The notes under the pieces: model-generated
The model's database searches: none
What the model was told of the DNA's origin: nothing
Seen by the model: only the letters and a program-made list of their open reading frames with translations
Assembly (NCBI GenBank): GCA_002197995.1
Contig: NGZR01000001.1
Span: forward strand, 1,550,001-1,614,000
DNA: 64,000 bases
From: Gaeumannomyces sp. JS-464
Taxonomy: Eukaryota > Ascomycota > Sordariomycetes > Magnaporthales > Magnaporthaceae
Reading direction: 5' to 3'
Program-made: the position numbers and the translations under genes
Shown: one piece after another, positions 7,375-64,000 of the stretch
Numbering within the stretch: the first letter of the stretch is position 1
Layout: every line of letters starts with the position of its first letter

Positions 7375-9266
7375 ATGGGCGAGGGCCCTGTTGCGGCAGC
7401 ATCCTCCCACCACCATCGCGACCGACTGCCCTCGCACGCTCTGGCGAAGCCGTCGTCGACCCCGGACTCCCAGAGTACCATGAGTCCGCCACCACGCCGC
7501 TCGTCCCTCGGAATGCTGCTGCGACGAAGCAAGTCGGGCGAGCTCAAGGGCAAGAAGGCCCAGGCCCGCGAGGCCGAGCTGCAGAGGCAGCGCGACGCGT
7601 CCATCCCCAAGTCCCCGCCCCGCCTGCCCGTCCTCTACAATGGCGCTCCCGCCCCGGAGCTGCAGACCTTTGGCAGCGACTCGCTGCGCCCCGACTCCGT
7701 CGCCATCGTCTCTGGCCACGCCTCGTCCATCGCCGACAGCCAGTCCCTGCTCTCCAGGCCCTCGTACGACCCGGGCTCTCGCTCCGTCGTCAACGTCCCC
7801 GTCCCCGTCCCGCCCATCCCCCACGGCGCCTGGGTCGACCCTTACGCCCGCACCGAGAGCATGACCCATCGCGGTCGGTACAGCTATGCCAGCAGCGCTG
7901 TCAGCACCGTAAACAACCCCAGGAGGGTCCGCAGGCGCAAGGACCCAACCCCTTTCAAGTGAGTCTCCTTCTGCCTTGCTCGTCTCGTCTTCTGTCGCTG
8001 CCTGGCTCGGTAGGCAGTGCGCCAGTCTGCCATCTCTCCCGGTTCTGTTTCGAGCTCTAGACCGCTGACACTCTTCCCTTGCGCACTCTGAAGCGTTCTG
8101 ATAGTCGGGACCCGCGGCTCCGGCAAGACGTCGTTTCTCGAGTTCCTCAAAACCTCTCTGGCCCTGCCTCCTAAGAAGCGGGCGAAGAGCACCGCCCCCG
8201 ACATGGATGACTTCACGCCCGCGCCACCACCGTCTGGCAACTTCATCCCACACTACATCGAGACTGAGATCGACGGCGAGCGCATCGGCCTCACCCTGTG
8301 GGACTCCGAAGGACTGGAGAAGAATGTGGTTGACCTGCAGCTCCGCGAAATGTCCACTTTCCTGGAGAGCAAATTCGAGGACACTTTCACAGAGGAGATG
8401 AAGGTGATGAGGTCGCCTGGCGCACAAGACACGCACATCCATGCCGTCTTCTTGGTTCTGGATCCTGCCCGGCTAGACCGCAACATCGCGTCGCCAAGGC
8501 ACAGGCGCCTACCGGCCACAACGGCAAGTACGTGGTGCAGCCGCGGATAGTGGGCGGTCTGGATGAGGACCTGGATCTCCAGGTCCTGCGGACCCTCCAG
8601 GGTAAGACCACCGTCATCCCCGTCATCTCCAAGGCCGATACCATCACGACAAAGCACATGGACGTGCTCAAGCGTACTGTCTGGGACAGCTTGAAGAAGT
8701 CGAACCTGGACCCGCTCCAGGCGCTGGGCTTCGACGAGGACGACTCCTCGACCCCCGACTCTAGCAGAATCGACGAGGAGCCCGAGGAGGAGGACGAAGA
8801 AGATGCGGCTGCACAAGCTGTTCAAGATGGCCAAGTCACGCCAACCAACGAGGCACAACCCCCAGCTCTCGGCGAGGATGGTGAGGAGGATCGGCGATCT
8901 GCAGTTACCGGGTCGCCCGCGTCGAAGCTGTCGAAGCGCGATTCGATCCGTCGTAGCCGCACGCAGGAGGAGCTTAAGGACGACGAGCCGCCCTTCATCC
9001 CCTTGTCTATCATCAGCCCAGACATCTACGAGCCCACCGTCGTGGGGCGTGCTTTCCCCTGGGGATTTGCAGACCCGTATGACTCGACTCACTGCGACTT
9101 CGTGCGGCTCAAGGAGTCCGTCTTCAGCGATTGGCGCGCCGAACTGCGCGAGGCCAGCAGGGAGCAGTGGTACGAGGCCTGGAGGACAAGCCGGCTCAAG
9201 CAGCGCGAGAACGGCAAGGGTGGCGGTGTCCGTCGCTATGCCACGACTGGAGGCATGGGCAATTGA
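7375..9266 (+). CDS. Septin-type P-loop GTPase (one apparent 1-base deletion)
   Basis: Exons are 7375-7958 and 8094-9266. The 135-nt intron (GTGAGT...CTGAAG, branch GCTGAC at 8,063-8,068) splits an Asn codon. The product is about 585 residues. A basic, Ser/Pro-rich N-terminus (SLGMLLRRSKSGELKGKK) precedes the G domain: G1 GTRGSGKTS (about 200-208), G3 DSEG (about 265-268), G4 SKAD (about 374-377), and a septin-like end with VVGRAFPWG and HCDFVRLKESVF. An acidic insertion (EEPEEEDEED) follows G4. No C-terminal coiled coil is seen. Septins form GTP-dependent filaments at the cortex and septa; this divergent subgroup may differ. At 8,488-8,490 the frame slips by one missing base (...RNIA then VAKAQAP); both sides are well conserved, so a consensus error is the simplest explanation. 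ATG 7,375 is the first in frame. Confidence 0.85.
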
Positions 9267-31461: not shown

Positions 31462-32640
31462 TGAGAGTGAGTGAGTGAGTATATTTAACGTCGGTAAGTC
31501 GGGATCTACCAATCCCTGCCTCCCAAGGGGCATACGACGTGCTAGCGCTACCTAAGCTAAACATTAGGCTACATGTTGCTATCCGGCGGCTAGCAGAATT
31601 AAACCCGAAGGCACACGGAGGTCGGGCCGCATTCCGGCGCTCCTTGTTGGTAAGCGGGCAATCGTTAATAGGGCGTATAAAACGCCAAGGCGTTAAAAGC
31701 GCTGCGGGTGGTACTAATGCGGTCGGCCGGCAAAGTGCCGGAAAAGGGGCGAGGCTAAGCGGGGGGTCCTTAGGACCACCCCTGGGTCCGGCCAAAAGAA
31801 AGAAAAGTTCGAGGGCTAAAGGGCCTAGTTCCAACCCGGTATGCTCCTTGTATGTCGCGTATCGAACGATAAGCTGCGCGGTTTGCTAACGTGGTGCGGG
31901 TCCCGGAGGCCGTTACGGTCACGCTGGCAAACAGAGCCGCGCGAAAACTTTGCGCGTAAAATGCCACCTATACATACGTATAGCCCGGCGTGGTAATAAA
32001 TAAGGGCGCGTGCAATTAAGCAAATTTTGCGCGTGCGTGCTTAAGCAGGTGTCTAAGCAGGCTAATCTTACGCCGTGCGTATCGTTAAATGCGGTCGATT
32101 AAAGAGAAGTCGCGAGTATAGTGGATAGGGCGGCGGCCGGTGCCGTGGTGCAACGGCGGCCGTGGTTGGCGGGGGACGGCGGCGGCCGGGCCGGCTTTTC
32201 GTCCAAAGTAGCTAACTGCTTGCCGGCCAGCAGTCTTTTCGTGCGTTCGAAATCGCTTCGGCTCGTCCGGTGCGGCGAAAGCGATAAGGAAGTTAAAAGG
32301 CGGTCAACCTGGTAATGCGAGGAGGTTAAAGCAATCCGATTATCAAAGGTTTCAGCACGCGCTTCGCGCGCGCCCTGGGCGATAGGGTGCAGGCCTTCCT
32401 TTTAATTGGCAATAGGCACCCCTATACCGTTGCCAACCATTTTCTGCTTTTTTGGCCCAGTTGCGTTGCCGGCGTCGGTATTAAAAGGAGTTGAAAAACG
32501 CGAGCGAAATAAGCTAAATGGTTTGTTAGTGCTTTAATAGTACTTTGGCCATTTTTAATAAGCTACACATTAAAAATAACCAGCTTTTTTAACGGCTATT
32601 AACAGTGGGTTTAATAGGAAAAGTTTTTAAAAAGAAGGTG
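31462..32640. other. Lightly mutated repeat-border DNA, unclassified
   Basis: 1.18 kb of mixed GC and AT composition, with no convincing reading frame and GC-rich patches (for example 32,120-32,200). It is bracketed by GCTTGCCCTAGGGGATG (31,445-31,461) and GCTTGCTTTAAAAGATG (about 32,641-32,657), which differ only by transitions, so it may be an insertion into the LTR that starts at 31,331. Confidence 0.4.
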
Positions 32641-45495: not shown

Positions 45496-45887
45496 TGTTA
45501 CGACCAACATGCAAGCCTTTAAAATAGCAAGGCAAAAAAAGGCCCCGAAATAGTACCTCCGCCCCGCCCGGTTACGTGGAATTACGTAAACCAAAAGGGA
45601 TTTATGGATTTGTAATAAAGCAGTAAATTTAAAAAGGATTTGTAAATTTGTAATAAAGCAATAAATTTAACCTAATACAAGGCAAAAAGCAACGTGTATA
45701 TAAAAAATGGATTTCCTTGTTTTAAGTAGCTTTAATTAAAGCTTCGGCATTAGTTAACTTAAGTTAACTTTTAAGCATTTCCTAAAGTAAGCAATTAAAT
45801 TGTCTTTTTAAATTACGTAATCCTCCGTTTACTAATACTAGCGATATTATCTTTTCCACCCCCAAATGCCCTATTTTAAAAGCAAAC
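45496..45887 (+). repeat. Family 1 3' LTR, truncated
   Basis: Starts TGTTACGACCAACATG and ends at GCAAAC. About 14-18 terminal bases are missing, replaced by the family 2 LTR. Confidence 0.75.
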
Positions 45888-46087
45888 TATTACGGCTAGT
45901 AAAGCTTTAATTGTAAATAAAAAGTTGGATTGGAAACTCTTATTGTTAAATAAAAACGGAAGCTCCGCAAAGTGGATCCCGCATAAAATATTTCAAATGT
46001 TTGCAAGGCTAGGCCTTCGGCCTTTAACCTATTTCAAAATAACATTTTTTTGCTTTACCAATTTCTTTGCTTTCGATTGCGTTAACA
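45888..46087 (+). repeat. Family 2 LTR, left
   Basis: TATTACGGCTAGTAAAG ... GATTGCGTTAACA. The second base is mutated (TG to TA). Homologous to 62,142-62,344. Confidence 0.85.
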
Positions 46088-47798
46088 ATTAGTAGCAACT
46101 CCGGAAAACCTAAACGACCGGCGCGAACGTAATCGCGAAAATCAATTACGTCCTTTTTTACTTACCTTTTTTCCCGGATTTCGCAAGCTTAAAACGGCGA
46201 CGATCCTTTTTATTAACGCAGGTTTAAAACGGCGTTAAATTTACGTTTAAGCAGGTTTAAAACGGCTTATAACGCTTTACTTTACGTTTCCCTTTTTACT
46301 AATCATCCACCCCGCTATTACAAGCTTAAAACGATTTTAACAATTACTAATTATTTACCCGTTAGCGTAAGCTTAAAGCGGCGTCGATAATTACTAGCAC
46401 TTTTTTTTTCTTTTTCCCGCTTACGGTAATACGCTCGCACTATCCGGATCCCCTTTTTAAGGTTATAAAAAATATTTTTCCATTTTTCGCGTTAAGCTTT
46501 AAACGGGCGTTAACATTCGAATTACCCTACTTTTACCTCGTTTTTTTACTTCCTTGATTATAGCCGATCCTTTTACTGCAAACCTTTCGGAACCCGATAA
46601 AAACAATCGAACATCGGCAAATACGCCTATATTAAACACGATACCCGGGTTTTTAATTTTTAAAAGCGATTTTCCAATGCTTTATCGGGCCGTTACCCAT
46701 TTATACATAACGATAATATGCATTTCGAAAAGGCCAAACGGATTAACAATCGGTTTAAAATAATATAACCACTTTCGGGCATTAAGCAACCTACTAAACC
46801 TTTTGCTGCTGTAATAGCTTTTAACCTTTTCACTTAACGATAATTACAATTTTAAATACGACTTTATTCGAAATATTCGCTTTAGCAAATTAGCATCGGT
46901 TATTTACCACTTACCTCGTGGGAAACGCGAAACTACGTTTTAAACGGTTACAAAAAAGCTTCGTCCTTTTAATTTACTTTTTAAAACTAACCTTTTCGGC
47001 TTAGCTTTAACGGAAAAACCATCCGCCGTTTAAAAAACCAAATTAAACATTATAAAAACCGCTTTTTCCACGCATTCGAAAAGTTAAAAGGCTTTGCTTA
47101 AAAGCAAAACAGTTTAAAACAATTATAACGAAATTAAAACAAGCTTATAAACTAAATAATAGCCAAATTGGAAAGCATCGAAAATAGCCGCAAGCGTTTT
47201 TAACGCTTTAAATATAAGCGTTATTATAATTCCCACGGTTCGTAATCGGTTTACAGCCGTAATTATGCCCTATTTCCAAATATAAGCGAAACACGCTACC
47301 GTTTTTAAAAAAATCCGACGTAAATAAACTTAAGCTTATAACGTACCGGCATAATCGTTACGCGATAACCAAAACCTTTTTTTTAACGCGCGCGTTACTT
47401 TTCTTTACAGCAACGGTTACGTTAAGCCCGAGGCATACCGCGAACGGCCTAATACGAAAGCATTTTGTTTTAAGCTTAATTGCTTTTAGCTAAATAAACC
47501 CACATAATATTACTATTACGGGCGGTAACAGAAACCCGTCGAACCCCTCGTTTTTTTTTACGACGACGATAACGGAAAAGCCCTTTTGGACCGAAAGCCA
47601 AAAAAACCTCCGCCTTACCTATTAAAAAACCCTTGTCCTTTCCGGTTTACTTTTATCGATACCTTTTAACAAAACCCAGCTCGGGGTAAAAGCAACTTTT
47701 ACGTCTTTTTACCGAAAAATAAAAAGGACCGAAATCGAAATCGGGACCGGAACGCTTAAAAAGACGCAAAAAACCGCGTTACTCGTAATTACAAATAA

Positions 47799-47916
47799 TG
47801 TTACGGGATAAGACTAAGGTTAATCCACGTGCACCACGAAGGCAAAAAAGGAACGTTGTTATAGCTGGGGCTACAACCGTGCGAAGTCCTTATTAAGGAA
47901 CGACTGCACCGTAACA
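47799..47916 (-). repeat. 118-bp terminal-repeat element, solo copy, inverted
   Basis: TGTTACGGGATAAGAC ... CTGCACCGTAACA is the exact-length reverse complement of the repeats at 51,153, 61,021 and 61,478. Flanks are AATAA on the left and TAACT on the right, which do not match each other but match the reverse complements of the flanks of 61,021-61,595. Confidence 0.9.
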
Positions 47917-48154
47917 TAACTCGAGCGCGTAAATTAAAAGTAAAATCTTTTTTTTAATCGTATAAGGTTTTTAGCGAAAAAAGGCTGTTTTATTATTTAC
48001 AATTCCTTTTTAAAGCTTATAAACGGCATTCATTTTTAACTAAACTTGGTTTTCTTTGTTAAATTTTTTATAACGGTATTTGCCATCGTATAGCTTTTTT
48101 ATTTCGGAAATAGCGAGGTTTATAACGTATTAAGCTTCGCGCTGGAAGTGCTTA
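47917..48154 (-). pseudogene. Family 2 integrase C-terminal part
   Basis: Minus-strand text with INLAISEIKKLYDGKYRYKK and ILLLIYALEL. Typical of Gypsy integrase after the catalytic core (helix with Tyr-Asp, then the small barrel). It continues on the plus strand at 61,596 after removal of the insertions. Stops come from Gln/Trp codons. Confidence 0.7.
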
Positions 48155-48159
48155 CGCAT
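48155..48159. repeat. Target duplication CGCAT (left)
   Basis: Matches 55,722-55,726, flanking the nested family 1 element. Confidence 0.9.
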
Positions 48160-48605
48160 TGTTACGACCAGCATGCAAGCTTTTAAAATAGCAAAGCAAA
48201 AAAAGCCCGAAATGGTACTTCCACCCCGCCCCGGTTACGTAAAGTTACGTAAACCAAAAAGGATTTGTAAATTTATAACAAAGCAATAAATCCAAAAAAA
48301 GATTTGTGAATTTATAACAAAGTAATAAATTTGAAAAAGATTTATAAATTTATAGCAAAACTATAAATTTAACCCAATATAAAGCAAAAAGCAGCGTATA
48401 TATAAAAAATGGATTTCCTTTTGTTTTAAATAGCTTTAACTAAAACTTCGGCATTAATTAACCTAAATTAGCTTTTAAATATCCCTTAAAGTAAACAATT
48501 AAATTGTTTTTTTAAATTACGTATTCCTTTGTTAACCAAATTAGCGATATTATCCTTTTTTCCCCCGAAATGCCCTATTTTAAAAGCAAACCTTTAATTA
48601 TAACA
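48160..48605 (+). repeat. Family 1 5' LTR of nested element
   Basis: 446 bases, TGTTACGACC to TATAACA. Confidence 0.9.
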
Positions 48606-51152
48606 TTTTAACTAATTTTATTTAATATTTCGTCGAAAAGAGGATAATGTAGCTATAGCAAACAGCAGTAAAAAGCTTTAAAAAAAAGCCACGGTTTTTA
48701 CCTTTAACGGTGTTAAGTACGATTTCGATAAAACAATTAACACGGCTAGCCTTTTTAAGCTTATAGCGGACGAAATCGCCAAAAGCCAAAACGAGGTAAA
48801 ACAATTTACTACGAAATTGGTATCCTTCGAAGCACTTATCGCAATCCGAACGTATAAATTCCCGTTTTCGGATTTTTACGAAAAAAAAAACGAAAAGCTT
48901 AAAACGTTCCTTACTAAATGTAAAAGCTATTTTAAATTTTACGAACAGCAATTTGTAAGCGAAAAATAAAAAGTTGCTTACGTTATTACCAAGCTAAACG
49001 TAAAGTAAAAAAATAGTTTTAACTAATTTGCAACGATTATTTTAAAAGGTATAAAAATAGCTAAAAACTACCAAACTTATTTTGCTAATTTCGAAATTTT
49101 CGGAAAAAAGGTCGGAAAAGTGTTCGGTACAATTAACGAAACCCGAATTGCCGAAAAAAACCTGCTGGCATTTAAACAACGAAAAGCCGCAGCCAAATAC
49201 GCAGCGGACTTTTAACGAATTAATATTAAGCTTAACTGGAATAATACCACGTTAATATTGCATTTTTACAAAGGGTTGCGCGAAAACGTAAAAATAAACT
49301 TGTAAAGCAAAATCGCCCCGAGTTTTTTACAAACTACGTTAAAAACGCGGTTCGCATTAGCGATAAATTAGAACGATAATAAAAAAAGAAAAATATGGTT
49401 TTAAAATTACGGTATAAAGCAATAAGGCTAACCAAAAAAAAGCTAAATAGCAACCTATTACGGCTTATAAAACGCATTTAAACCTTATAAATTTTAGCGC
49501 AAAAGCCGCTTACTAATAATAAAGGCAGCAAAAAAAACAAAAGCAAAACCCGAAAAATGGGAAATGCTTTAAATGCGGTTAAACCGGCCATATTAAAGCA
49601 TATTGCTTTTAGCAAAACAATAACCGCTAGGTAGTAAACTTTTAGCGAACGTAAAATAGCCCGATATAAAAAAAAGCATGTTTTAAACCGACGTTTAGCT
49701 AAACGTGTTATTATAACGAGCTATGCGATATATACCAGTTTAATAAAAAAGCTACCGAATGGTATTTTCGGAAACTTTAAAACATTTATATATTTAAAGC
49801 TATAAAGTTTAAATACAATAGCGAAGGAAAGTAACGCGTCGCTTCCGGGTTTACAAATTCGAAAAAAAAACGATACCGCTTTTTGTAAAACTTAAAAAAA
49901 AACAGTCCTAATAAACGAATTAAAAGAAGGTAAAGCCCGAAAAAAGCTTTTAAGCTAAACACACCTTTTTCGAAAGTCGGAAAACTCCGATACCGACGTT
50001 AAAATAAACCAAAACGGTTAAAACCTTAAAACGGCCGAGTTTTCAAAACGAGCAAAAAGCCCGAGCAGCGTAACCGTTATACCGATAATCCGCGAAAGCC
50101 AGGCAAATTGGAAAAACCAGCGCGCTTTTACACTTTTTAACGTATTAGAGTGTTTTTGGAACGTTAAAGTTTTAAAGCACCCAAATGGCCCGTTATGCTA
50201 TATTACCCCCCGGTAAATAAAATTAACGGCAAATTTTTATCGTAATTTAACGATTACTAAAAAGTTAAATACGTTAACTACCGGTTTAACGACGTAAGTA
50301 AGTTAAAAAAAAGCTGCGTTAAAACCTGAAAACTATTCTAGCGTTAATTTAAAATACCCCGGACATTTGTACTTTTTTTAAGCAAATGCATTTACGAAAA
50401 ATGCAAATTTCATTTATAACCTAAGTTTAAATACGATTTCTTTTTACGGAAGTTAAAAAACGAGCTAAAAGTTAAGCCCCGTTTAGCATTTTAATTGCTA
50501 CGGTAAAAATTAGCTTAAATCGGCAGGTTTACCGCAATTTTTAAGCTTAGCAAACGGCATTTAATACTATATGTTATTAAAACATTCGATTAGGGAAAGT
50601 GCGAAATTATAAAATGCAAAAAGCATATATTATAAAAAGCGGAAATCTAGCATTAGGGGATCGCATAAACGTATATCCCGTTTAACCCGGACAAAAGGAC
50701 GAATATACGGTACTCGTTCTTTTTATTAAAAACTAAAAAAAACCACTTAAACGAAAAGTGCGAAATGGAAGAAAAAAAACCGATAAAAACCTTCGCAATA
50801 GCAAAATCAAATTAACCGTACAACTTATTAACATTTCGAATAAAATATTAAAAAAAAAGGTTAAAGTAATAATCGATTGCGAAGTATAAAGCGATTATAT
50901 ATCGTTATAAGCGGTTAAACGGTATAAAATCTTTACAAATCGAAAACGTTAACCGTATTAACTAAAAACGGTTAAAAAAAATACCTATTGCTTATAATAA
51001 AAAATGGATTAACCGAAAAACACAATTAATAATATTACGCACCCGAAGCAAAAAAAAACGTTATTATTACATTAGATAAGCTGGATATAAAAAAAGGAAA
51101 CGTGATTTTCGAAATCTTTTAGTTTAAAAAAAACAACTCGCGGATAAATTAG

Positions 51153-51270
51153 TGTTACGGTGCAGTCGTTTTTTAATAAGAACTTCGCACGGTTGTAACC
51201 CTAGCTATAACAACGTTCCTCTTTTACCTTCGTGGTGCACGTGGATTAACTTTAGTTTTATTTCGTAACA
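51153..51270 (+). repeat. 118-bp element, solo copy with ATTAG duplication
   Basis: TGTTACGGTGCAGTCG ... TTTCGTAACA. ATTAG at 51,148-51,152 and again at 51,271-51,275. The family 1 copy at 38,761 has the unoccupied site (AAATTAAGCTACTGG, about 41,743). Confidence 0.92.
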
Positions 51271-53272
51271 ATTAGGCTACCGGCCAAATCCAATAAAAAA
51301 AGCTACAAATAATTAAAACGGTTTAACAATTATAAACTTTAAACCGTAAATATAAAAAGCAACGAAAAAAAGTTACAACGGTAATAGGATTTAGCAATTC
51401 ACTTTCGCATTTAATATCGGCGAATATATAATTATCCAAAATGGAAAGCAATTAAAACGATTAAACTAATATTAAAAAACGGCTCGCGAATGTTTCGGAA
51501 AAATACTACAAATACGAAAAATTGTTTAAAAAAAACCTAAAAACGGTATTTCCCGAATATAAACCGTTTAATTTTAAAATTAAACTTAAATTAAAAACGC
51601 AGTTTAAATGTTAAAAACTGTATTAGCTTAACCTTCGATAATAAAAAATGCTAAAAAAACAGCTGGAAAAAAACCTACGAAAAGGATATATTAAAGCTTT
51701 CGATTTTCTAATAAAACATAGGATTTTATAAAGAAAAAAAAACGGGACGGAGCGAATATGCATCGATTACCGACCGTTAAACGAAGTTATAATTAAAAAT
51801 CGATATTTTTTGCTTTTTATCGACGAGCTGCGCGATAAGCTCGGCAAAGCTTAATATTTTACAGCTTTGGATTACGAAAAGCTTATAGCTTAATACGAAT
51901 TAAAAAAGGCTAAAAGTGGTTTACGGCTTTTAAAACCAGGTTTAAATGCTACGAATTTTTAGTAATAATTTTCGGATTTATTAATGCATTAATTACGTTT
52001 TAAAAGATAATTAACCACGTATTGCGCGAATATTTCGACGTTTTCGTTTTCGCGTATTTGGATAATATTTTAATTTTTTCGAAAACGATAAAAAAAGCAT
52101 AAGGAGTACGTATATAAAGTGTTTTAAAAGCTGCTTAATGCAAAGCTTTTTGTTAAGCCCGAAAAATGCGAATGGCATTTGCAAAAAGTCGCTTTTTTAA
52201 AATTTGAAATTATATTTGGATAAATTTGCATAAATTTTAAAAAAGTTAAAAAAGTTAAAAAATAGCTTATATTTAAAAACGTTACGAAAATACGAAGGTT
52301 TTTAAAAAATTTAAACTTTTACAAACGGTTTATCCGTAGTTATAGCAAAATCGCTATACTATTTACGAATTTTACTAAAAATAACCATTAGTTTTATTAG
52401 GAAAGGTAAAAATAAAAGGCTTTAAAGCAATTATAAAACGCCGTATAAAAAAAACCAATATTAATATTTCTAAACCTAAAAAAACCTTTCGAGGTTAAAA
52501 CCGACGCGTTGGATTACGGGATCGGCGGCCAATTTAAATAAAAAAAACGATTAAAAACGATTGCATTTCTGCGCGTTTTTTCGCAAAAGTTAAATAAATT
52601 TAAATTAAATTACCAAATCCACGATAAAAAACTTTTAGCAATTATCCGAGCATTTGAAAAATGGTAATCGCATTTTTATAAAACGAATTATTAGGGTATA
52701 ATATATAAATTATAAAAATTTAACACATTTTACTATTAGCAAAAATTTAAATAAGCGATAAATCCGTGAAAATGAATTTTTGCAAAATTACAACATTCGG
52801 ATCGAATACCGGAAAGGGTTTAAAAACGGCCGGGCGGACGTTTTAAGCCGACGACTAAACTATTAGGTTATAATACCTAAAAAAAACACGAGTAATTTTA
52901 ACGGAAAAACTAAACGGATTTTTAATCCCGGCATAAAGGATACTCGTTAAAACGGTCCGGTAAAAAAAAGTTTAAACCTTAAAAAAAATCTAACAAATTT
53001 ACGGCCAGGTGGTATACGGCTATTAAAGCGTAATTAAAACGTGGAAACGGTTATAATAATATTACAGGTTTGTAAAAAGTTAAGCCGAAATATAAAACGC
53101 AATAAAAAATTGCGAAAATTGCGTTAAAAATAAAGCTAGCAGGCATAAGCTTTATAAGCTTTTATAACCGCTGTTAACGCCGAGCGAAGCATAGTAAAAA
53201 GTTATTATAAATTTTGTTATTAAATTTCCCTAATTTAAAAAACCAATAACCGGAGTAAAGTACGATAATATA

Positions 53273-53500
53273 TTGGTAATAATGGATAGGCTTACTAAAT
53301 ACGCTTTATTTTTACCATATAAAAAAAGCACCGACGCTATAAAACTAGCGTACGTTTTTATTAAACACGTAATAGCGGAATACGGCACGCCGAACCGCTT
53401 AATTACGGATGAAAACAAGCTATTTATAAGCAAATCTTGCAAAGGATTTATAAATAAGCTAAAAGCGAAGCACTTTTTATTTATAGCTTACCATTTTTAA
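53273..53500 (+). pseudogene. Integrase core fragment of nested family 1
   Basis: 75-codon open stretch: MDRLTKYALFLPYKKS ... FIKHVIAEYGTPNRLITDE ... FIAYHF. It contains the first two Asp of the D,D,E triad in their usual contexts (DRLTKY, TDE). Only locally open. Confidence 0.8.
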
Positions 53501-55279
53501 ACAAATAAATAAAGGAAGCGGATAAACCAAACCATAAAGCAATATTTACGTTATTACGTTAATTATAAATAAAATAACTAGGTATAATTACTTTTTATAG
53601 CTTAGTTTATTTACAATAGTTTAATTTATAAAAGTATAAAAACTATACCGTTTTATGCGAATTACGGGTTTACGCTTACGGCATATAAAAAACCTAAGGT
53701 AGGAAAATATGCTTTAATAGCGGAAATATAAGTGACAAAATTTACCGAATTGCATAAACATTTCCAAATAAAGCTAAAAAAAAATTACGGCATTGTATAG
53801 CTATTTAAATAAACAAAATAAAATCGAAAAACCGACTTTTAAAAAAAGGGATAACGTTTATCTTTTTCGACGAAATATTAAAACGAAACGATTAAACGAT
53901 AAGTTAAATTATAAAAAATTAAAACCGTTTAAAATACTACAAAAGGTTTTAAACGTAAATTATAAACTCCGATTACCGCTAATTATAAAATCCCACCCGG
54001 TTTTTTATATTTCCCTATTTAAACTAGCGTTACCAGGCTTTAAAAGCGACGAGTTAAAAATCGACGTAAAATAAAAATACGAAGTTAAATTTTTTTTAAA
54101 TTATAAGTTAAAAAATAGGCTTAAAAAGTACCTAATTAAGTGGAAAAAGTACGGTTATGAAAAAAACACGTAGGAAAAAAAACGAATTTTAAACATTGTT
54201 AAAAACTTTTAAAAAAGTATTAACAAAAACACTTATAAAGGAGTTAGCAAAAGGAAAAAAGGCGGGCCACTTACCATAGCCGTTATTCGTATACCCGGAC
54301 GAGCATACGAAAAGCGACCGTGAAAAGGAATAACTTTAGCCCAGCCGGGAGTTAAACCCGGGATTTACAAAATGGGTGTTATAAATAATACCGTTTTACC
54401 ATTAGGTTAAAAAAAAGCAGCACTTACCGGAACTAAATAAAGCAAAAAGGTTATTACGAATAGTTAAAAAAAAAAAAAAAAAAAAAAAACCAGGCAAAGC
54501 TCGAACGGAACATTTTATTAAAGCCTTTTTAGCACGGTCGTGCCGAAATTCGAACCCGAAACTTCGGTAAAAAGACAAAAGCCACGCTTAATGCGCTATA
54601 AAACTTAAAAAAGTTATTAAAAAAAGTTACAATTTACTTTAGTTAAAAAAAGCAAATAGGTTTAAGTTAGGATTAACCTTAAGCATTTGCTAATCGAAAA
54701 GAACGAAAAAAGCTATAAAGGGCTCGAAATGCAAAGCAGTTTAGCGAGCCGCTTGGTTAGCCTTCCCCCGCTTAATACGCTTTAACTTTTTTACCAAATT
54801 AATACCACGACGTACCGCGCGCATTATCTTTTCCAGCTATATTCGTTTTTATTTCCGAAAACGGAAAACTTTTTTCTCCGCTTTTTCCAGCTTAGCTTTA
54901 AATTTGGAATGCTAAACGACGATATTCCGAAGCTTAAAAAGAAAAAGCTTTAAAACGTTACACCCCGAACGATTAATTCGAAAATATTCCACGCACCGAA
55001 ACGAGTTTTAAAAAAAAGCTTTACACTTTTTTACGTTTTAAAACCTCGTAATAATAAAAGCAAAAAGGTATTTCGAAGGAATAAAAAAAAATAATCGTTA
55101 AAAGCTTTTTACAACTAACGGTTTTCTTCGCAAAAAACGTTTCCGCACCCGACCGAACATTTTGTTAAATAAAAAAAATAGGAAAAGTAAAAAAGGAAAG
55201 TAAAAAAGTACTTACCATTAACAAAAAGCGGGGCGATAAAACGTGGCTAAAAAAACTTGGCTTAAAAAGGGAAACTTAA

Positions 55280-55721
55280 TGTTACGACCAGCATGTAAGC
55301 TTTTAGGATAGCAAAGCAGGAGGAGGCCCGAAATGGTACTTCCGCCCCGCCCCGGTTACGTAAAGTTACGTAAACCAAAAGGGATTTGTGGATTTGTAAC
55401 AAAGTAATAAATTTAAAAAGGATTTGTGGATTTGTAATAAAGCAACAATCCGAAAGGGATTTGTAAATTTATGGTAAAGGTACAAATTTAACCTAACATA
55501 AGGCAAAAGGCAGCGTATATATAAGAATGGATTTCTTTTTATTTTAAATAGCTTTAATTAAGGCTTCGGCATTAGTTAACCTAAGTTAGCTTTTAAGCAT
55601 CCCCTAAAGCAAGCAATTAAATTGTTTTTTTAAGTTACGTGTTTTTTTTTAACTAAATTAGCAATATTGTCCTTTCTTCCCCGAAGTGCCCTATTTTAAA
55701 AGCAAACCTTTAATTGTAACA
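55280..55721 (+). repeat. Family 1 3' LTR of nested element
   Basis: 442 bases, TGTTACGACCAGCATG to TTGTAACA. Confidence 0.9.
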
Positions 55722-55726
55722 CGCAT
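55722..55726. repeat. Target duplication CGCAT (right)
   Basis: See 48,155-48,159. Confidence 0.9.
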
Positions 55727-56600
55727 GTACTAAAGGTTAAGCGTGTTTTTTAGGTTTAAATTAGTAAGGCGAATAACCGGTTTAAAAAGTTTAAATCCGA
55801 AAAGAAACTTGTGCGGTAAACAATTCGTAACCGACGTAATCGAGTTGTTAATATCCTATTAAAATGCAAGGAAAATGTCGACCTAAGCGGAATATTTTTA
55901 AACGTAAAAGCGAATGGCTAATTTTATTAGTTGGTTTTTCCTTTTAAATTGTCCGTTAGTTTAGGAATGGTAAGCCGTGGTTATAGCGAGCTTAGTTCCA
56001 AAGCCTTTTTAAAAGGTTTGCCAAAAGGCTCCGGTAAATTTGGCATTTTTATCGGAAATAATAGCGCGGGGATAAAGCCAATTAGTTATAAAAAAATGTT
56101 GTAATAATAGCGAAGCCTAGTGTTTTGCATTATAAGTATCGTGTTTAAAAATTAAAATAGTTCGTTTAAATGTTTATTAATAACGGTAAAAAGGGCGTTA
56201 AAAAAGTTGTAAGTGCTAAATTGCTAAAAGGTGTTTGCTAACGGTACGATTAAAAATGCAGTAATAAAGTTCATAATTAACACGCTTATAAGTTTAATTG
56301 GGGCTTGGATAAGTTGGAACGTGCTAATGGGCTTTTGGTTATCGATTTGGTTTATGCTGTAAACGTAACAGTTTTTAATATATTAGTCGATTTGGCGCTT
56401 TTTAAACCGGAAATGCATACTAGCGAAAGCGTTTGTTATACGTTAACGGCCAAAGTGGTGCTTGTAATTATAAGCCTTTTTAAAAAAGGGTTTTACTATA
56501 AAAAATAGGATAATAAGTCGTTTAATCTTATTATTATTCCTATTATAAAGCACGCTTTCGATAACGCGGAAAAGGTGCCCGGTTTTAAAAGCGTTTAGCA
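55727..56600 (-). pseudogene. Family 2 integrase remnant
   Basis: Minus-strand text TAYHS-stop-TNGQFKRKNQ (the TAYHPQTDGQ region), FYV-stop-KYSA, INNSITSVTNCLPHKFLFGF and so on, as in Gypsy integrases downstream of the catalytic core. Continuous with 47,917-48,154 once the nested element is removed. Confidence 0.75.
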
Positions 56601-57739
56601 CGTTTTTATACTTAAAAGGTGCTTTACCGGGGCGGGGCGTAGCGAACTTCGTAATTAACTTGTAAAACCCGGGTTTTCTTTATAATGCTTAATAAATTAA
56701 AATCGTATGCTGTTTTTTATAACAGCCTCGGCTATTTGCAAAACGTGCTTAACGTCGTCCTCGTTATGCCGGTCGTTAGGGCTTTTTTTTAAAGCGAATT
56801 TAAAACGGGTTCGTTAAGTTTAGCACGTGTTTCGGCATCTCTTATAATGGTTAAAAAACAAGATAAAGCGTTAAAAATAAGGTTAAAGCGTTTTAGCACG
56901 TGGTAAACGTTTAAAAGGTAAGCGTTAAAGTAAATAAACGCGTTAATTAAACGTTAGTTAGCGCGGTCCGTTAAAACGGTGTTAAAATAAATCTTGTTAA
57001 CGATGTTAAAAGTAGCGTCGTGGTTTATAAAAACAATAATTTTAGGTTGGTTATTAAAATAAAGCAAAGTACGGAGCTTTTTGCACGATTATATAAGGCA
57101 GGCTACTTTTAACTCGGACGGGCTATAATTTAGCTTAAAAGCCGTAAAATAACGATTAAAAAACATGATAAGCTGGATAACGGTGGCCGGGATTACGGTT
57201 TTTAGCTTTTAAACGTAATCGAGTTGAGTTTAAAAAATTATAATTTTAAAGCCTCGCTTAAAAAATCCGTCGATTTAAAAGTAAAAGGTTCGGTTCGGGT
57301 TATAATAGTACAGTTTTATATGCTTGCAAATGTGGCTTTGCAAAGCTTTAAAAGATTTAAGCTTATCGGCAGTCGGGGTGAATTTAATGCTTTTTGCGTA
57401 ATGCTAACGTTAATTTTCTTTTGTTTTTCTTTGCTTGCGGCTTTTAATTAACAAAAGGATTTTGCGTTTTGGAAAAGCTCGGCGATTTTAGCGTAATAGG
57501 GAATTATTAATCGGAAAAAGCTAGTGTTATCGAAATAGGTTTCCAATAATTTAAAGGTATTAAAACGGCGATATCGCGGAAGCTTTGCACCCGAAATTCG
57601 GTGGTTGAAAGTCCGAAAGCGTCGACGTAAAATCTAAAAAGCTTAACGTTCGGGTAGCTAACAAAGCTTTTTTTTAAAAAGATCGCGATGCTTTTGCTTT
57701 AAAAAAGTCCAAAAATTTCTTTTAAATGCTTTTGGTGGT

Positions 57740-58140
57740 TTTAAAAATTATCCGAAAAAATAATAATATCGTTAACGAAGCAATGGTAAAAGTGTTTGTA
57801 AAAATAAAACAGGTTATTTATAAAGCGTTAAACGTAAGCAAATAAGTTCCGGTAACTTATAAAAGCGATACGCGAACGTTTAAAACCTTTGTGGTTTAAA
57901 ATCGTAAGCCGGTCCTAATGCTTTAAATGTATAAAAAATTGGAAGAAAAAGGCGGTGGTATTAATAACGGTGGCGTATTTTTTGCCTTTTAATGCGTTAA
58001 TAACGTTTTGTTAAAAAGGAAAAAGGTACGCGTCCGGGATTAAAATTTTGTTAAATTGGCGAAGGTTAACGATAACACGATTTTTGGGTTGGCTGTAAAC
58101 CATGCGCTATATAACGAAGCAAAGGAACGCGAAAAATGTA
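57740..58140 (-). pseudogene. Family 2 reverse transcriptase remnant
   Basis: Minus strand: VYSQPKNRVIVNLRQFNKIL, then PDAYLFP, FFFQFFIHL, and the catalytic box FVNDIIIFSDNF at about 57,745-57,790 (expected Tyr-x-Asp-Asp; first Asp now Asn). Order and spacing match Ty3/Gypsy fingers-palm. Confidence 0.8.
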
Positions 58141-59955
58141 ACGTGGTTAACTGGTTTTAAACGTTCCTATTCGTTAAATTTATTATGCGTTTTGTCGATA
58201 ACGCTTTTATTTTTACGAGTAATAAAATAAGGTCGGTTAAATAGCTTAGCGCTTTAGTTTTGCCATTTTTTAATAAAAGGGATTATTATTTATTCGTTTT
58301 CGGGGATATCGATTAGTCTTTTATCGCGCTAAATATTTGCGCGTTTACAAATGTTTTTAAAAATTCGGGCTTTCGTTAAGTTTCCATTATACACGTAAAC
58401 CTTGTCCTTAGTTAAAATGTAAAGTGCTTTTTTAAAAGCACGGATATTGCTCCTTTTTTCCGAAATACGGGGAAAAAATTTCAAGAGGTTAAGCATAGGG
58501 TTTTTTAATGGGATATTAACGTCCGGTTTAAATTTAAGCTTTTTGGGAACCTTTTTTAGCATTATAAGCATTTTAGCTTTTTTTCCTCCTAGTGTTATAT
58601 TTTAAACTTAATTAAATAGTAATATAAAATAGCACGCCCATTTAGCTTTTAGGTTTTTTTTTCCGGCAATTACCCGTAAGTGGTGCCTTTTTAATTAACC
58701 CTTTTGGTTTGCGAAAATTACGATTTAATTGTACGTTTAACGTTATTATCTTTTTTTTTGCCTTAGCTAAAGCTAGCGATGCGGATTATTTCGGGGATAA
58801 TCGGTTTAAAACCGGCGTTTTAAAAAGCTTTACCCGTAACGGATGCTTTAAAAAAAAAAGGTCGAAAGGGTTTCGAAGCCGTACTCGGCGTTATATTTAA
58901 CTTGGTAGCTTATAACGGCGGCGGCTAATGCTGTTATACTGGTAACAGCTTTAAAAGCTGTTTTAAAATTAAAAATTTAGTAAATTTAGTTCGTATGCTT
59001 TCGAATGGTAATTATACGTATGTTTTTGGTAAATCGCATAAGTTAGCCTATAGCGTTATGCGCTAAGCATACGGGTTTAATATTGCAATTAATTACGGTA
59101 TTAAAAGCAGTAAAATGGGTTCCTTTTATAAAAAACGTGCGCTTTTTAAAAAGCGGGAAGTACTTTACCAAAATTGCAATGGTTTGCTACGCCGGAATTA
59201 CAACGGCGTTAGCAATTTTAACGGTTCGGACAATTGCAATGCTTTTTTTAACTATAGCGATCGAGGCGTGGAAATGGTCCAAAAGGAGGTTAATTAAATC
59301 GGCCGTAAAGTTAATTAAAGCTTTTTAAAGTTTAAAAAAAGCAACGCTAAAAATTATACCCGCAGTTAAATGCTTAATAATTTAAACGTAGGTTAACTGT
59401 TTAAATACGGCGGGAAAGCCGTTAAGGTAATAGCTAAGCGTATAAAAAGTAACGCATGCGAATTTAATAGTACGCTTAAAACGCTTGGAATTTTATCCAA
59501 AAAGGATAGGTTAAACGTTAGGGTTGTTTACGTTGTAAACCTTATGCTTATAATAACGGAGGAAGCCGATAATTACTAAATTTCGGCCAAAACCGCAGTT
59601 AGAATAAATTTAAGTTTTTTAGCTATTAAAAAACAAACGGATTGTTATTTTAGCGTAAAAGTAACCGCTTAATGCGATTATGTTTAGGTTAATTTTAATA
59701 GCCTTTTTAATAACGTTTGCTTTTATAAACTGCTAAAAAGTAAAAGTTTCCTCGTTAATTTAATAAACGGGCTCGCTAAAATAAACGGTAAAATAAGCAA
59801 AAAGCAAATTGCGAAAAAAAGTAACGACGTTATAGCGTTTGCAAATGTGCGACCCCGTGCGCTTTTCGATAGCGTAAAGCTTATCCGCGTTAACGGATTT
59901 TGTAGCGTTTAAAACGCTATTATCGTTGTTTTAGTTAACCGGCGAATTTCCGGCG

Positions 59956-60396
59956 CTAGGCGTCGCCGTTTTTAACGTTATAAATTCGGTCGCGCGGTTT
60001 GTAATTTAAACGTTTGTAATTGCGATTTTTATTACGACGGTTACGGCTGCCACTTTTTTTATAATCGTTTTTGCGATTATTACAGTTTTTATAATTGTTT
60101 CGTTTATAATCGTTTCGTTTATAATCGCGATTTTTATCGCGATGGTAATCCTTACGGTTAAAATTACAGCGAAAGTCGTAATAGCGAAAATCGTAACGGC
60201 GAAAATTTAAATGGCGGTAATTTCGATTATAATCCCGACGTTTATTACGAGATTTGTTATAATAGCGATTGCTAAATTTGCCAAAGCTGTAATTATCGCG
60301 TTTGCTATTGTAATTGTCGTTATAGCTTTTATTGCGAAAGTTATGTTTTTTAATTATAGTATTAAAATAATGCTTTAGGGTTACGGTAATTAGCAT
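59956..60396 (-). pseudogene. Arg/Asn/Tyr-rich Gag region of family 2
   Basis: A 146-codon open frame of mostly Arg, Asn, Tyr, Lys and Asp (NYKRNDYKRNN-type). It sits upstream of the reverse transcriptase on the same strand, where a basic Gag linker would be. RIP (Arg/Gln/His codons to Lys/Tyr/stop) may have increased the Asn/Tyr share. The frame stays open because such codons rarely mutate to stop. Confidence 0.5.
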
Positions 60397-61020
60397 TAAA
60401 TTGTTTTTTTTAATATAGCGAAGGTATTTAGCGCGAGTTTTTATCGATTTAAAAGCTTTTAGCCGCGTTTAAATGCTTAAATTAAAACGGTTCCAAATTT
60501 GGATTATAATGCCGTACTAGTTGCCGTTTTGGGTAATGCCTATGCCTTTAGCAAAACGGAGCATTTTAAAAACGAATTAGTGTAAAGCGGATTCGTTTAT
60601 AGCCAGGTTTCGAAAAGTAAAAGTCGTTTTAGTAAAAAGCTTAATAGTTTTGCTAGCGTTTAAAGCGAATTATTATTTAAAAGTTATAAAAATGCTATTA
60701 AGCTTTAAACTTTTAAAATGGCGCGTTTTTTACGATTAAGTTAGCTATTTTACCAAATGGCTATTAAACCGTTAAAAAGGGTTTAAAAAAGGTTAAACAG
60801 TTAATAATTAACGTTTTATACCGTGTTTAGGTTTTCGCGGAAAATTTCAATCCGTTCGGTAAAAAAGTAAACGTTTGTAAAAATTGCTAGTTTAAATCGA
60901 ATAGGATGTTTTAATTATCGGGATTTTTTTAATAAAATCGAAAACTTCGATTATTTTTCGTTTAAAAAAAGCGATTTTCGTTAAAACGAATGGATATGTG
61001 GCTATTAATTGTTTGTTATT

Positions 61021-61595
61021 TGTCACGGTGCAGTCGTTCTTTAATAAGGACTTCGCACGGTTGTAGCCCCAGCTATAACAACGTTCCTCTTTTGCCTTCG
61101 TGGTGCACGTGGATCAACCTTAGTCTTATCCCGTGACAGTTTGTTATAGCTCACATGGGTCGCTCGAGTTCAATCCCCGCACGGTCGCGCGCACAAGTTT
61201 TATCCGTGGCGCAACGGTCGCGTGCACGGAAGCCACTTATGGCGCTTCTTTTGCTGGGGCGGGGGCAATTGGCTCCAGCGATTCGAAAAGCCGACCGAGG
61301 CTTTTCGGGGGAAGCTTATTAAGCTTGATCGACCCCGCGGCACGTGCATTTCGGTGCATGGGCGCCAGCGCCTCGCTTGCGCAGCGCCAGCGCTAGCACC
61401 TTCCTTGTGCAGCGCACCCCTGGAAGGCAAACCTTAATAAGCAATTGGGGACCAATTGCGGTTTAAGGGTGGGGTATTATCACGGTGCAGTCGTTCCTTA
61501 ATAAGGACTTCGCACGGTTGTAGCCCCAGCTATAACAACGTTCCTTTTTTGCTTTCGTGGTGCACGTGGATTAACCTTAGTCTTGTCCCGTGACA
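61021..61595 (+). mobile_element. TRIM-like miniature element: 118-bp terminal direct repeats around 339 bp
   Basis: Repeats 61,021-61,138 and 61,478-61,595, each 118 bases with 8-base inverted termini (TGTCACGG/CCGTGACA). They differ at six sites, all transitions. The core is GC-rich and almost free of RIP. A purine stretch AAGGGTGGGG (about 61,464-61,474) sits just before the right repeat like a polypurine tract. The core has GTTCAATCC (B-box-like, about 61,169-61,177) and TGGCGCAACGG (A-box-like, about 61,206-61,216). No protein is encoded. TRIM is the best class by structure; a SINE captured between two repeats is possible. Confidence 0.75.
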
Positions 61596-61921
61596 AGTTA
61601 CCTATTAACGGCATTAGGATTTATTTAGTAATATCCATCCAGCACCTTTTTCGCTACCACGCTAAAAACGATCCCTTTTAGCGAATGCTGGCACTACTTG
61701 GCCTTATCGACTATACCCCGGTTAACGACGAATTCGATAACTTTAGCAACTTTAACGACAAATCGTTTAAAGTTAAACGCATTATTAACTATAAGGTTAA
61801 AAAGGGCGGCGTTATCGAATACTACGTAATTTGGAAAGGATACGAAAACTACGAAAGCTTTTAAAAGCTTAAAGCTAACTTTAAACACGCATTTAAAGTA
61901 ATCGAGGTTTACGAAAAGTCG
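61596..61921 (+). pseudogene. Family 2 integrase tail and chromodomain
   Basis: Reads PINGIRIYLVISIQHLF (the pre-chromodomain strand, HPVISVAQL in relatives), then after one stop VKRIINYKVKKGG, EYYVIWKGYENYESF-stop and HAFKVIEVYEK, a clear chromodomain (WKGY core). In phase with the minus-strand end at 47,917 when the inversion is undone. Confidence 0.8.
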
Positions 61922-62141
61922 CAAACAACTTTAACCGCGTTTAAAAGCAAAGTTAACGCTTTTGCTAACGGCTTTTTCCCGGCAGTTAACAACGTTTTTA
62001 AAGCTTAAAACCTACTCCGGTTAAGCGCGACCGTAAACGCCCGCGCGAAAATTAGGCGCTATAAAAGCGAAAAAAAGGAAAACATTATGCTATTTGTATT
62101 TAACATCGAAAACGGTGCCGTTTTTTTAAAAGGCCGGCATT

Positions 62142-62344
62142 TGTTACGGCTAGTAAGGCTTTAATTGTAAATAAAAAAGTTAAAACTAAAAACCTTTATC
62201 GTTAAATAAGGACGGAAGCTCCGCAAAGTGGATCCCGCATAAAAATATTTTAAATCTTTACAAAGCTAGGCTTCCAGCTTCCAACTTACTTCGAAATAAC
62301 ATCTTTTTGCTTTACCAATTTCTTTGCTTTCGATTGCGTTAACA
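62142..62344 (+). repeat. Family 2 LTR, right
   Basis: TGTTACGGCTAGTAAGG ... GATTGCGTTAACA, 203 bases. Confidence 0.85.
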
Positions 62345-63273
62345 GGCTATAAAAGCTACTATTCGACGGATTTCGAGCTTTATTACTAAAAATATAACAT
62401 TATTACGCTTTATATGCTTTCGCATTTGTTTCCTTTTTTTAACCGCTTAACGTTAAATGTTTTAACCTGCTAAAAAAAGCGTACGGTTAATAAATCGAAG
62501 GTTTTAAAAAATTACACGTTAATTACGTAATTAAAGTCGAGTTTCTTTCGGCGTTTAAAGCGTTATTTTTTAACTTTATAATTAAAAGAAACATTTGTAA
62601 AAGCTTTCGAAAAGCTAGTTTTACTTTTTTTAATCCGGATTCGGTTTTAAAAAAGCTGGATGTAAGGTTATAAATTTTAACTCCTTTAAGGAAGCTTTTA
62701 AACAACGCCGAACTTTAAACTTTTAAAACGCCGCGGATAGCTAAAAAAGCAACTTCGTAATCCGAATATATTAAAACTCGAATTACTAATTATTAAAGCA
62801 GTTTTTTAACACTTATATTAGCGGTTATAAGTTAAATCGCAAAATGAACGAAAGTAATAATGCATAAAGTGGCCCTTTTTTAAGCCGAAATGTTTACGCT
62901 TAAAAAGGCGAACGAAGCATTTAGCAAACGCCGAAAAGCCAAAAAAAACACGTGTTTAACTTAAAAGGTTATTTACTATCGAAAAAGTACGAAATGTTTT
63001 AAACCAGCAAAAGTTAAATAAATAATTATAATAAAAAAATGCGCGATTATAAGGGTTAAAAAAAAGGGCGACGACAACTCGTCGGCGATATAGCATTTAC
63101 GGTAAAACCGGATACAATGCGCGCATTTGTTAAAAAAAAGTAAAAAAGTTTAATATATACAGTTTTAAATAGTTTAAATGGATTCCTAGCGTTATTAGGT
63201 TAATATGCGCGTCGATTAACCGGAGGTCGAGTATAAGTGCGCGATAATGTGGTTTGCGCGATAAGGTGGTAAC
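62345..63273 (+). mobile_element. pogo/Fot1-type transposase remnant
   Basis: Plus-strand fragments YYSTDFELYY and NIITLYMLSH (the end of the DDE domain: FxxYCxxNNIITLCMPPHSSH in relatives), then SSFFRRLKRYF, KETFVKAFEK (the ENI..GF..AGL region), ANEAFSKRRKAKK and finally YGKTGYNARIC, a mutated zinc-knuckle CGKTGHNARTC. This order is that of fungal pogo-family DDE_1 transposases. The 5' part is missing at the family 2 LTR. RIP-damaged. Confidence 0.75.
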
Positions 63274-64000
63274 TTACGTTACCGGGCTTTAAAAGCGACA
63301 AGTTAATAAAAGTTAACCTAAAATAAAAGTACAAAATTAAAGAAATTTTAAACTATAAGTTAAAAATAGGCTTAAAAAGTACCTAATTAAATGGAAAAGG
63401 TACGGCCACGAGGAAAACACGTCGAAAAAAGCAACCGACTTTATAAGTTGCTAAAAAGCCCTAATAAAATACCAGCAAAAGCACTTACAAAAAGGTTAGC
63501 AAAAAAAAAAGGGTTTTAAAAAAGTCCGACATTGTTAAACTTTTCCTTAAACGGTCGTGCCGGGATTTAAACCTGAAACTTTAATAAAAAAAACTAAAAC
63601 TACACTACAATATGCTATAAACCTAAATAAATTGTTAAAAGCATCGCAACTTACTACGGTTAATAAAGGCAAGCAGGTTTAAGTTAAAATTAACCTTAAA
63701 CGATTGCTAATCGGGAAAAACGGTAAAAGCTACAAATAATTTAAACTGCGTGGCAATTTAGCAAGCCTTTCGGTCGGCCTCCTCCCGCTCGACACGTTCC
63801 AATTCCTCCACTAAGTTAATACCACGGCGCACCGCGCGTATTATTTTTTCCAACTATATCCGTTTTTGTTTTTAAAAACGAAAAACTTTTTCCTCCGCCT
63901 TTTCCAGCTCGGCTTTAAATTTGGAATGCTGCACGACGATATTTCGAAGTTTTATAAACGAAGGCTTTAAAATGTCGCACTTTAATCGGTTAATTTGAAA
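63274..64000 (+). mobile_element. Family 1 Gypsy fragment (3' end), runs off the window
   Basis: It starts at ACGTTACCGGGCTTTAAAAG, homologous to 44,494 onward: chromodomain remnants, then the tRNA-like antisense segment (63,550-63,620), then the 3' non-coding part with CTCCCGCTCGACACG. The 5' side is replaced by the pogo remnant. Confidence 0.75.

What the first reader, a model, noticed from the sequence alone, without database searches (positions are those of the whole stretch)
47799..61595. A 13-kb inversion caught by swapped target duplications of a 118-bp element
The 118-bp repeat at 47,799-47,916 is inverted relative to the one at 61,021-61,138. Flanks of the first are AATAA (left) and TAACT (right). 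Flanks of the 575-bp element are TTATT (left) and AGTTA (right). Neither pair matches itself, but TAACT is the reverse complement of AGTTA, and TTATT of AATAA. Flipping 47,917-61,020 gives AATAA...AATAA and AGTTA...AGTTA, two perfect 5-bp duplications. It also places all family 2 coding remnants on one strand and joins integrase (...IYALEL) to PINGIRIYLVISIQHL and its chromodomain in phase. This is strong evidence for ectopic recombination between tiny inverted repeats only 118 bp long.
Basis: seen in the sequence. Interest (0 to 1): 0.9.

Follow-up and report, generated by a model that had tools for sequence, protein, structure and literature searches.

The report
Retrotransposon inversion with swapped target duplications
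In a fungal-type genome, two copies of a tiny mobile element that had landed in opposite directions inside one dead retrotransposon recombined and flipped the 13,000 bases between them, leaving exchanged footprints; the event looks real, but it is of a known kind.

Summary
A 118-bp LTR-like repeat (47799-47916, minus) has flanks AATAA/TAACT; a 575-bp terminal-repeat element (61021-61595, plus) has TTATT/AGTTA. Neither pair matches itself; swapped, both match exactly. Other copies of the host retrotransposon settle the order: in 13 of 13 copies where both left flanks were found, 47,798 runs on into the reverse complement of 61,020; in 11 of 11 close copies the complement of 47,917 runs on into 61,596 with exactly 5 bp shared; no listed hits show the window's order. 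Without a nested 7,562-bp element that kept its own duplication, the inverted part is 5,537 bp (nine other copies: 5,412-5,566). So two insertions in opposite orientation recombined and inverted 47,917-61,020. Not shown: that only 118 bp of homology was available (the left copy may then have been a full 575 bp), which LTR was the partner, or chimeric LTRs; no reads were available. The mechanism is known (Galileo inversions in Drosophila). New detail: the 575-bp element is TRIM-like with a self-priming-type primer site, and its LTRs are the only inverted repeats, of 25 listed, still at least 90% alike.

The parts
45888..62344 (+). Host copy of an LTR retrotransposon with chromodomain ('family 2'): 5' LTR 45888-46087, 3' LTR 62142-62344; carries three insertions and the inversion; 8,187 bp net of these
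   Evidence: eight other copies span 8,105-8,254 bp (coordinates)
47799..47916 (-). solo LTR-like copy A of the 118-bp repeat, left breakpoint
47794..47798 (+). AATAA, first half of duplication 1
47917..47921 (+). TAACT = reverse complement of AGTTA, displaced half of duplication 2
47917..61020 (.). inverted segment (13,104 bp)
48160..55721 (+). nested LTR-type element ('family 1'), 7,562 bp, flanked by CGCAT at 48155-48159 and 55722-55726; lies wholly inside the inverted segment and kept its duplication
51153..51270 (+). solo LTR-like copy D of the 118-bp repeat inside the nested element, duplication ATTAG/ATTAG intact
61016..61020 (+). TTATT = reverse complement of AATAA, displaced half of duplication 1
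61021..61595 (+). 575-bp TRIM-like element, right breakpoint
61021..61138 (+). left LTR B of the TRIM-like element
61478..61595 (+). right LTR C of the TRIM-like element
61141..61151 (+). primer-site candidate, perfectly complementary over 11 nt to 61071-61081 in LTR B
   Evidence: 11 nt in 4 of 6 full copies, 8 and 9 nt in the other two
61465..61477 (+). purine-rich tract before the right LTR
   Evidence: seen in sequence
61596..61600 (+). AGTTA, other half of duplication 2
61682..61861 (+). chromodomain piece of the host element, stop-free

Best explanation
A chromodomain LTR retrotransposon (family 2) received two insertions of a 575-bp TRIM-like family in opposite orientation: one at AATAA, one at AGTTA about 5.5 kb further along. 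Each made a 5-bp target duplication (shown: both targets are single and uninterrupted in other copies). One of them is now a solo LTR. Homologous recombination between the two inverted copies, with a reciprocal outcome, then inverted everything between them (47,917-61,020), which exchanged the inner halves of the two duplications (shown by the flanks; the crossover itself is inferred). A 7.6-kb LTR element that sits inside the inverted part kept its own duplication; whether it arrived before or after the flip is open.
For: Swapped exact duplications. Empty sites: the left flanks are contiguous in 13 of 13 copies where both were placed and the right flanks in 11 of 11 close copies, always on opposite strands, i.e. 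in the flipped order; the spacing extrapolates to exactly 5 shared bases in 8 of 13 (4, 6, 7, 7, 12 in the rest, with small indels in the alignment) and in 11 of 11. In 10 of 10 copies holding both outer flanks within 20 kb, F1 and F2 are on opposite strands, against the same strand here. Lengths fit: 5,537 bp net against 5,412-5,566 in nine copies; 8,187 bp net for the whole host copy against 8,105-8,254 in eight. Internal controls: nested element CGCAT/CGCAT and solo D ATTAG/ATTAG, both inside the segment, are self-matching. 21 of 26 other usable insertions of the family match themselves within one base.
Against: The LTRs do not prove a crossover: at 8 variable positions among A, B and C, A=B at 3, A=C at 3, B=C at 2; the best crossover model still has 1 misfit of 5, and 5 of 10 random orders do as well. 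The host copy's own outer flanks do not match each other (CAAAC against GGCTA), while 8 of 9 other copies match within one base, so the locus has at least one further unexplained rearrangement or error. No reads and no orthologous chromosome from another strain were available.
Confidence: 0.9

Rival explanations
1. Assembly error: the assembler walked through the 118-bp repeats the wrong way and the chromosome still has the ancestral order.
For: A false flip at inverted repeats would give exactly the same swapped flanks, and the flipped order is the one seen in the other copies. The host copy's outer flanks also mismatch.
Against: No N in the window; contig of 15.65 Mb and 34 contigs for 53 Mb suggest long reads (inference), which span 118 or 575 bp easily. 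The unique sequence on either side of each repeat begins at once.
Confidence: 0.07
2. The same inversion, but with more homology than 118 bp: the left insertion was a full 575-bp element when it recombined (anywhere in it), and became a solo LTR later; or the crossover used the right LTR (61478) rather than the left.
For: Solo LTRs outnumber full copies in the family: 6 full rows against 28 solo or partial rows in the listing used. Flipping to either LTR of the 575-bp element restores both duplications (follows from the flanks).
Against: Nothing direct. The LTR site pattern fits the right-LTR model badly (5 misfits of 8 at best, against 1 of 5 for the left-LTR model), but the sites are few and mostly RIP-type transitions.
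Confidence: 0.4
3. The inversion arose by template switching or break-induced replication between the repeats rather than by a reciprocal crossover.
For: Short inverted repeats can act through such routes (established knowledge); the product would look alike.
Against: No loss, gain or extra bases at either join relative to the other copies beyond small indels seen among the copies themselves, as a reciprocal exchange predicts.
Confidence: 0.15
4. Chance: the two insertions have lost or decayed duplications and the swapped match is an accident.
For: AT-rich 5-mers; RIP-type mutation blurs duplications (5 of 26 others have two or more mismatches).
Against: 2 of 650 exact cross-matches for one side alone, and independent proof of inversion from the other copies.
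Confidence: 0.01

Closest known systems
Galileo-mediated inversion 2z3 of Drosophila buzzatii (PMC2775673; I saw passages and section 10 part 1)
   Same: Two copies in opposite orientation at the breakpoints, exchanged target duplications, single-copy targets in the uninverted state, no deletion or duplication.
   Different: Galileo is a cut-and-paste transposon with kilobase-size copies and its copies are clearly chimeric (53 sites); here LTR-type repeats of 118 bp, chimerism undecided, the uninverted state is seen in paralogous copies of the host element, and the segment lies inside one retrotransposon.
Inversions of D. pseudoobscura between 128-bp and 315-bp repeats (only as cited in a passage of PMC2775673)
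   Same: Very short inverted repeats.
   Different: Those repeats are of obscure nature; here they are LTRs with target duplications.
LTR elements with unequal target duplications in Mycosphaerella fijiensis (PMC3562529, passages)
   Same: 125 of 640 LTR elements had different flanks at their two ends, read as ectopic recombination in a fungus with RIP.
   Different: In the passages seen, no partner with the swapped flank was identified; here the partner and the product are.
TRIM elements, reported in fungi too (Cochliobolus PMC4112212, Venturia PMC4646964; passages)
   Same: Under 1,000 bp, terminal direct repeats of 118 bp, short internal part.
   Different: Primer site looks self-priming rather than complementary to a tRNA (tRNA match not tested).
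Tf1-type self-priming (PMC7175516, passages)
   Same: 11 bases complementary to the primer site next to the 5' LTR.
   Different: Here shown only as sequence complementarity; transcript start unknown; no coding region.

Membership tests
Inversion by ectopic recombination between mobile elements | two copies of one element in opposite orientation at the breakpoints | tested here: met
Inversion by ectopic recombination between mobile elements | exchanged target duplications | tested here: met
Inversion by ectopic recombination between mobile elements | single, uninterrupted target in the uninverted order | tested here: met
   13 of 13 and 11 of 11 copies of the host element; paralogous copies, not the same locus in another strain
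Inversion by ectopic recombination between mobile elements | both copies chimeric | tested here: inconclusive
   8 variable sites, no clear blocks
TRIM (definition as in passages of PMC6934838) | under 1,000 bp with terminal direct repeats of 100-250 bp | tested here: met
   575 bp, 118-bp repeats
TRIM (definition as in passages of PMC6934838) | primer site complementary to a tRNA | not tested
   only complementarity to its own LTR was tested: 11 nt, 2 of 5000 shuffles reach it; the fold of this stretch is no more stable than shuffles (z 0.37)
TRIM (definition as in passages of PMC6934838) | polypurine tract before the 3' repeat | tested here: inconclusive
   purine-rich AAGGGTGGGG at 61465-61474; function untested
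TRIM (definition as in passages of PMC6934838) | no retrotransposon proteins encoded | tested here: inconclusive
   longest ORF touching the element 87 aa; not searched against protein libraries
Chromodomain Ty3/gypsy retrotransposon (host copy) | chromodomain near the 3' end of the coding part | tested here: met
   PF00385 E 2e-5, just under the curated cut-off; HP1 chromodomain in the PDB
Chromodomain Ty3/gypsy retrotransposon (host copy) | integrase and reverse transcriptase | tested here: inconclusive
   integrase: PF00665 has no listed match in the window among 25. In one search eight other stop-free pieces gave nothing significant; the sequence is full of stops. Reverse transcriptase was not searched on its own

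The most novel reading that the evidence does not exclude
In a genome whose long repeats are driven apart by RIP-like mutation, very short LTR elements that largely keep their identity become the main substrates for ectopic recombination; the 118-bp inverted pair may even flip back and forth within one strain. In this window the three TRIM-LTR pairs are the only ones of 25 listed inverted repeats (40 found) with at least 90% identity, the other 22 being 75-87% although longer as a rule.
Probability: 0.2. Interest if true: 0.6.

Novelty: new member of a known kind. Interest (0 to 1): 0.35.

Why it matters
It is an unusually clean natural record of one recombination event: the two targets, their order before the flip and a built-in control insertion can all be read from one genome. 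It makes a wider question testable: whether, in fungi that mutate long repeats, short LTR elements below the length that RIP recognises (a threshold recalled, not tested here) carry most ectopic recombination. Swapped duplications can be screened for in any long-read assembly.

Tried and rejected
Chimeric LTRs as proof of the crossover: inconclusive. RNA families and tRNAs in the 575-bp element: ARAGORN found no tRNA in the window and cmscan of 46000-64000 gave no match above any gathering score and none in 61021-61595; an early idea of a tRNA-like promoter in the internal part was dropped. Host element's own duplication: CAAAC against GGCTA do not match; 8 of 9 other copies do within one base (7 exact), one (C1:501929) does not. 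I looked for a partner with the swapped flanks among 8 further LTR copies with both flanks and 4 single ends and found none. Rejected: insertions made after an older inversion, because then each would match itself. RIP escape by the short repeats is only a hypothesis: copy A, taken alone, scores RIP-like (TpA/ApT 2.5, (CpA+TpG)/(ApC+GpT) 0.65, but only 118 bp), while the internal part of the 575-bp element does not (0.73 and 1.5). No relatives of this genome are held, so no comparison between strains or species was possible. Searches in print: (listings), with passages of PMC2775673, PMC3562529, PMC7175516, PMC6934838, PMC4112212, PMC4646964, section 10 part 1 of PMC2775673, and the abstract and outline of PMC12368964. 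I did not search print for this very locus or species, which is unnamed.

Full report
Setting. The window is C1:1550001-1614000 of a 53.0-Mb genome in 34 contigs. Its first 32 kb is GC-rich (0.576) and the rest AT-rich (about 0.30-0.34) with RIP-like dinucleotide indices (TpA/ApT 1.39-1.62, (CpA+TpG)/(ApC+GpT) 0.50-0.56, against 0.63 and 1.24 in the GC-rich part). That it is an ascomycete-type fungus is inference from this pattern.

The observation. The 118-bp repeat at 47799-47916 is inverted relative to 61021-61138 (96% alike) and to the right LTR of the 575-bp element (97% over 114 nt). Of 26 other usable insertions of the family, 15 have exact 5-bp duplications and 6 have one mismatch (rows dropped: 2 duplicate sites, 2 truncated copies, 2 rows of one interrupted copy whose outer flanks do not match). 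Exact agreement between flanks of different insertions is rare: 2 of 650.

The decisive test. I searched the genome separately with the four flanks: F1 (47399-47798), F2 (47917-48120), F3 (60621-61020) and F4 (61596-61995). F1 gave 15 rows besides the window, which make 13 copies in which F1 and F3 could both be placed at the join (one row is an outer fragment of a copy already counted, one is a partial hit without F3 nearby). In 13 of 13 F3 follows directly on the opposite strand. The extrapolated overlap is exactly 5 bases in 8 of 13 and 4-12 in the other five; the alignment shows continuous sequence with small indels. Eighteen other F3 rows, mostly more distant copies, had no F1 match and say nothing. 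F2 gave 21 other rows: in 11 of 11 close copies F4 follows on the opposite strand with exactly 5 shared bases; of 10 distant ones, 3 show the same with overlaps of 5-8 and 7 had no F4 match nearby. In 10 of 10 copies with F1 and F2 within 20 kb the two are on opposite strands; here they are on the same strand. No listed hits had F1 next to F2 or F3 next to F4 within 1 kb. The flipped order is therefore the ancestral one, and both targets were single before insertion.

Lengths and controls. A 7,562-bp LTR-type element, 48160-55721, lies in the segment with CGCAT on both sides; in the other copies the sequence before it runs on into the sequence behind it. Without it and its duplication the inverted part is 5,537 bp; nine uninterrupted copies have 5,412-5,566 bp between the same two sites, a tenth has 13.6 kb. 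The host copy runs from its 5' LTR (45888) to its 3' LTR (62344), 8,187 bp net of the three insertions, against 8,105-8,254 bp in eight other copies (coordinates). The nested element and the solo LTR D inside it (ATTAG/ATTAG) are insertions within the inverted segment that kept matching duplications, as expected when both ends move together.

Coding remnants. The only family match among nine stop-free pieces was a chromodomain at 61682-61861 (PF00385, E 2e-5, 24.8 bits, cut-off 25.1; HP1 in the PDB, E 6.8e-5). The minus-strand piece ending at 47917 and the plus-strand piece from 61598 are in the same phase relative to the shared target when read apart.

Mechanism. Two insertions in opposite orientation, a reciprocal exchange between them and inversion of the stretch between explain all of this. 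Not settled: the length of homology (118 bp if the left copy was already solo, up to 575 bp if not), the partner LTR (either one restores both duplications), the order of nested insertion and inversion, and chimerism (8 variable positions: A=B at 3, A=C at 3, B=C at 2).

The element. At least 40 matches of the LTR (capped list) and 9 matches of the internal part, including two halves of one interrupted copy. In 4 of 6 full copies read, 11 nt starting 0-2 nt after the 5' LTR are perfectly complementary to an 11-nt stretch at LTR position 50-51; in the other two 8 and 9 nt, starting 3 nt after it. 2 of 5000 LTR shuffles reach 11. The fold of this stretch contains that helix but is no more stable overall than shuffles (z 0.37). 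Tf1 RNA has 11 such bases (passage of PMC7175516).

Against. The host copy's own outer flanks do not match (CAAAC, GGCTA), although 8 of 9 other copies do within one base; a partner was sought and not found. This points to a further exchange at the outer LTRs, or to an error. No reads could be examined.

Compared with what is known. The criteria used for Galileo (opposite orientation, exchanged duplications, single targets in the uninverted state, no loss or gain) are met apart from chimerism, which is open. Repeats of 128 bp have been implicated in D. pseudoobscura (as cited in PMC2775673). TRIMs are reported in other fungi (passages of PMC4112212, PMC4646964). The case is a new, very legible member of a known kind.

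Noticed in passing
45883-45887 and 62345-62349: The host retrotransposon's own outer flanks do not match (CAAAC, GGCTA); its 5' LTR starts inside a truncated family-1 LTR whose last bases do not follow its 3' LTR. 8 of 9 other copies match within one base. Points to another exchange at the outer LTRs; no partner found.
   Followed up: partly
61071-61081 and 61141-61151: 11-nt self-complementarity between LTR and primer-site region of the 575-bp element, like Tf1-type self-priming.
   Followed up: partly
L013-L016 (contigs C34 and C2): Two insertion sites occur twice, on C34 (759830, 803399) and on the 144-kb contig C2 in opposite orientation with identical flanks: a duplicated segment or an unmerged second copy in the assembly.
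   Followed up: no
L023 (C1:14696228-14700698): A full TRIM-like element interrupted by about 1.4 kb and with non-matching outer flanks.
   Followed up: no
C1:501929-510094: A host-family copy whose outer flanks also mismatch (AGTTT, TTTTA), a second candidate for LTR exchange.
   Followed up: no
32000-32500: Sharp border between GC-rich gene-bearing DNA (about 0.58) and AT-rich repeat DNA (about 0.30).
   Followed up: no
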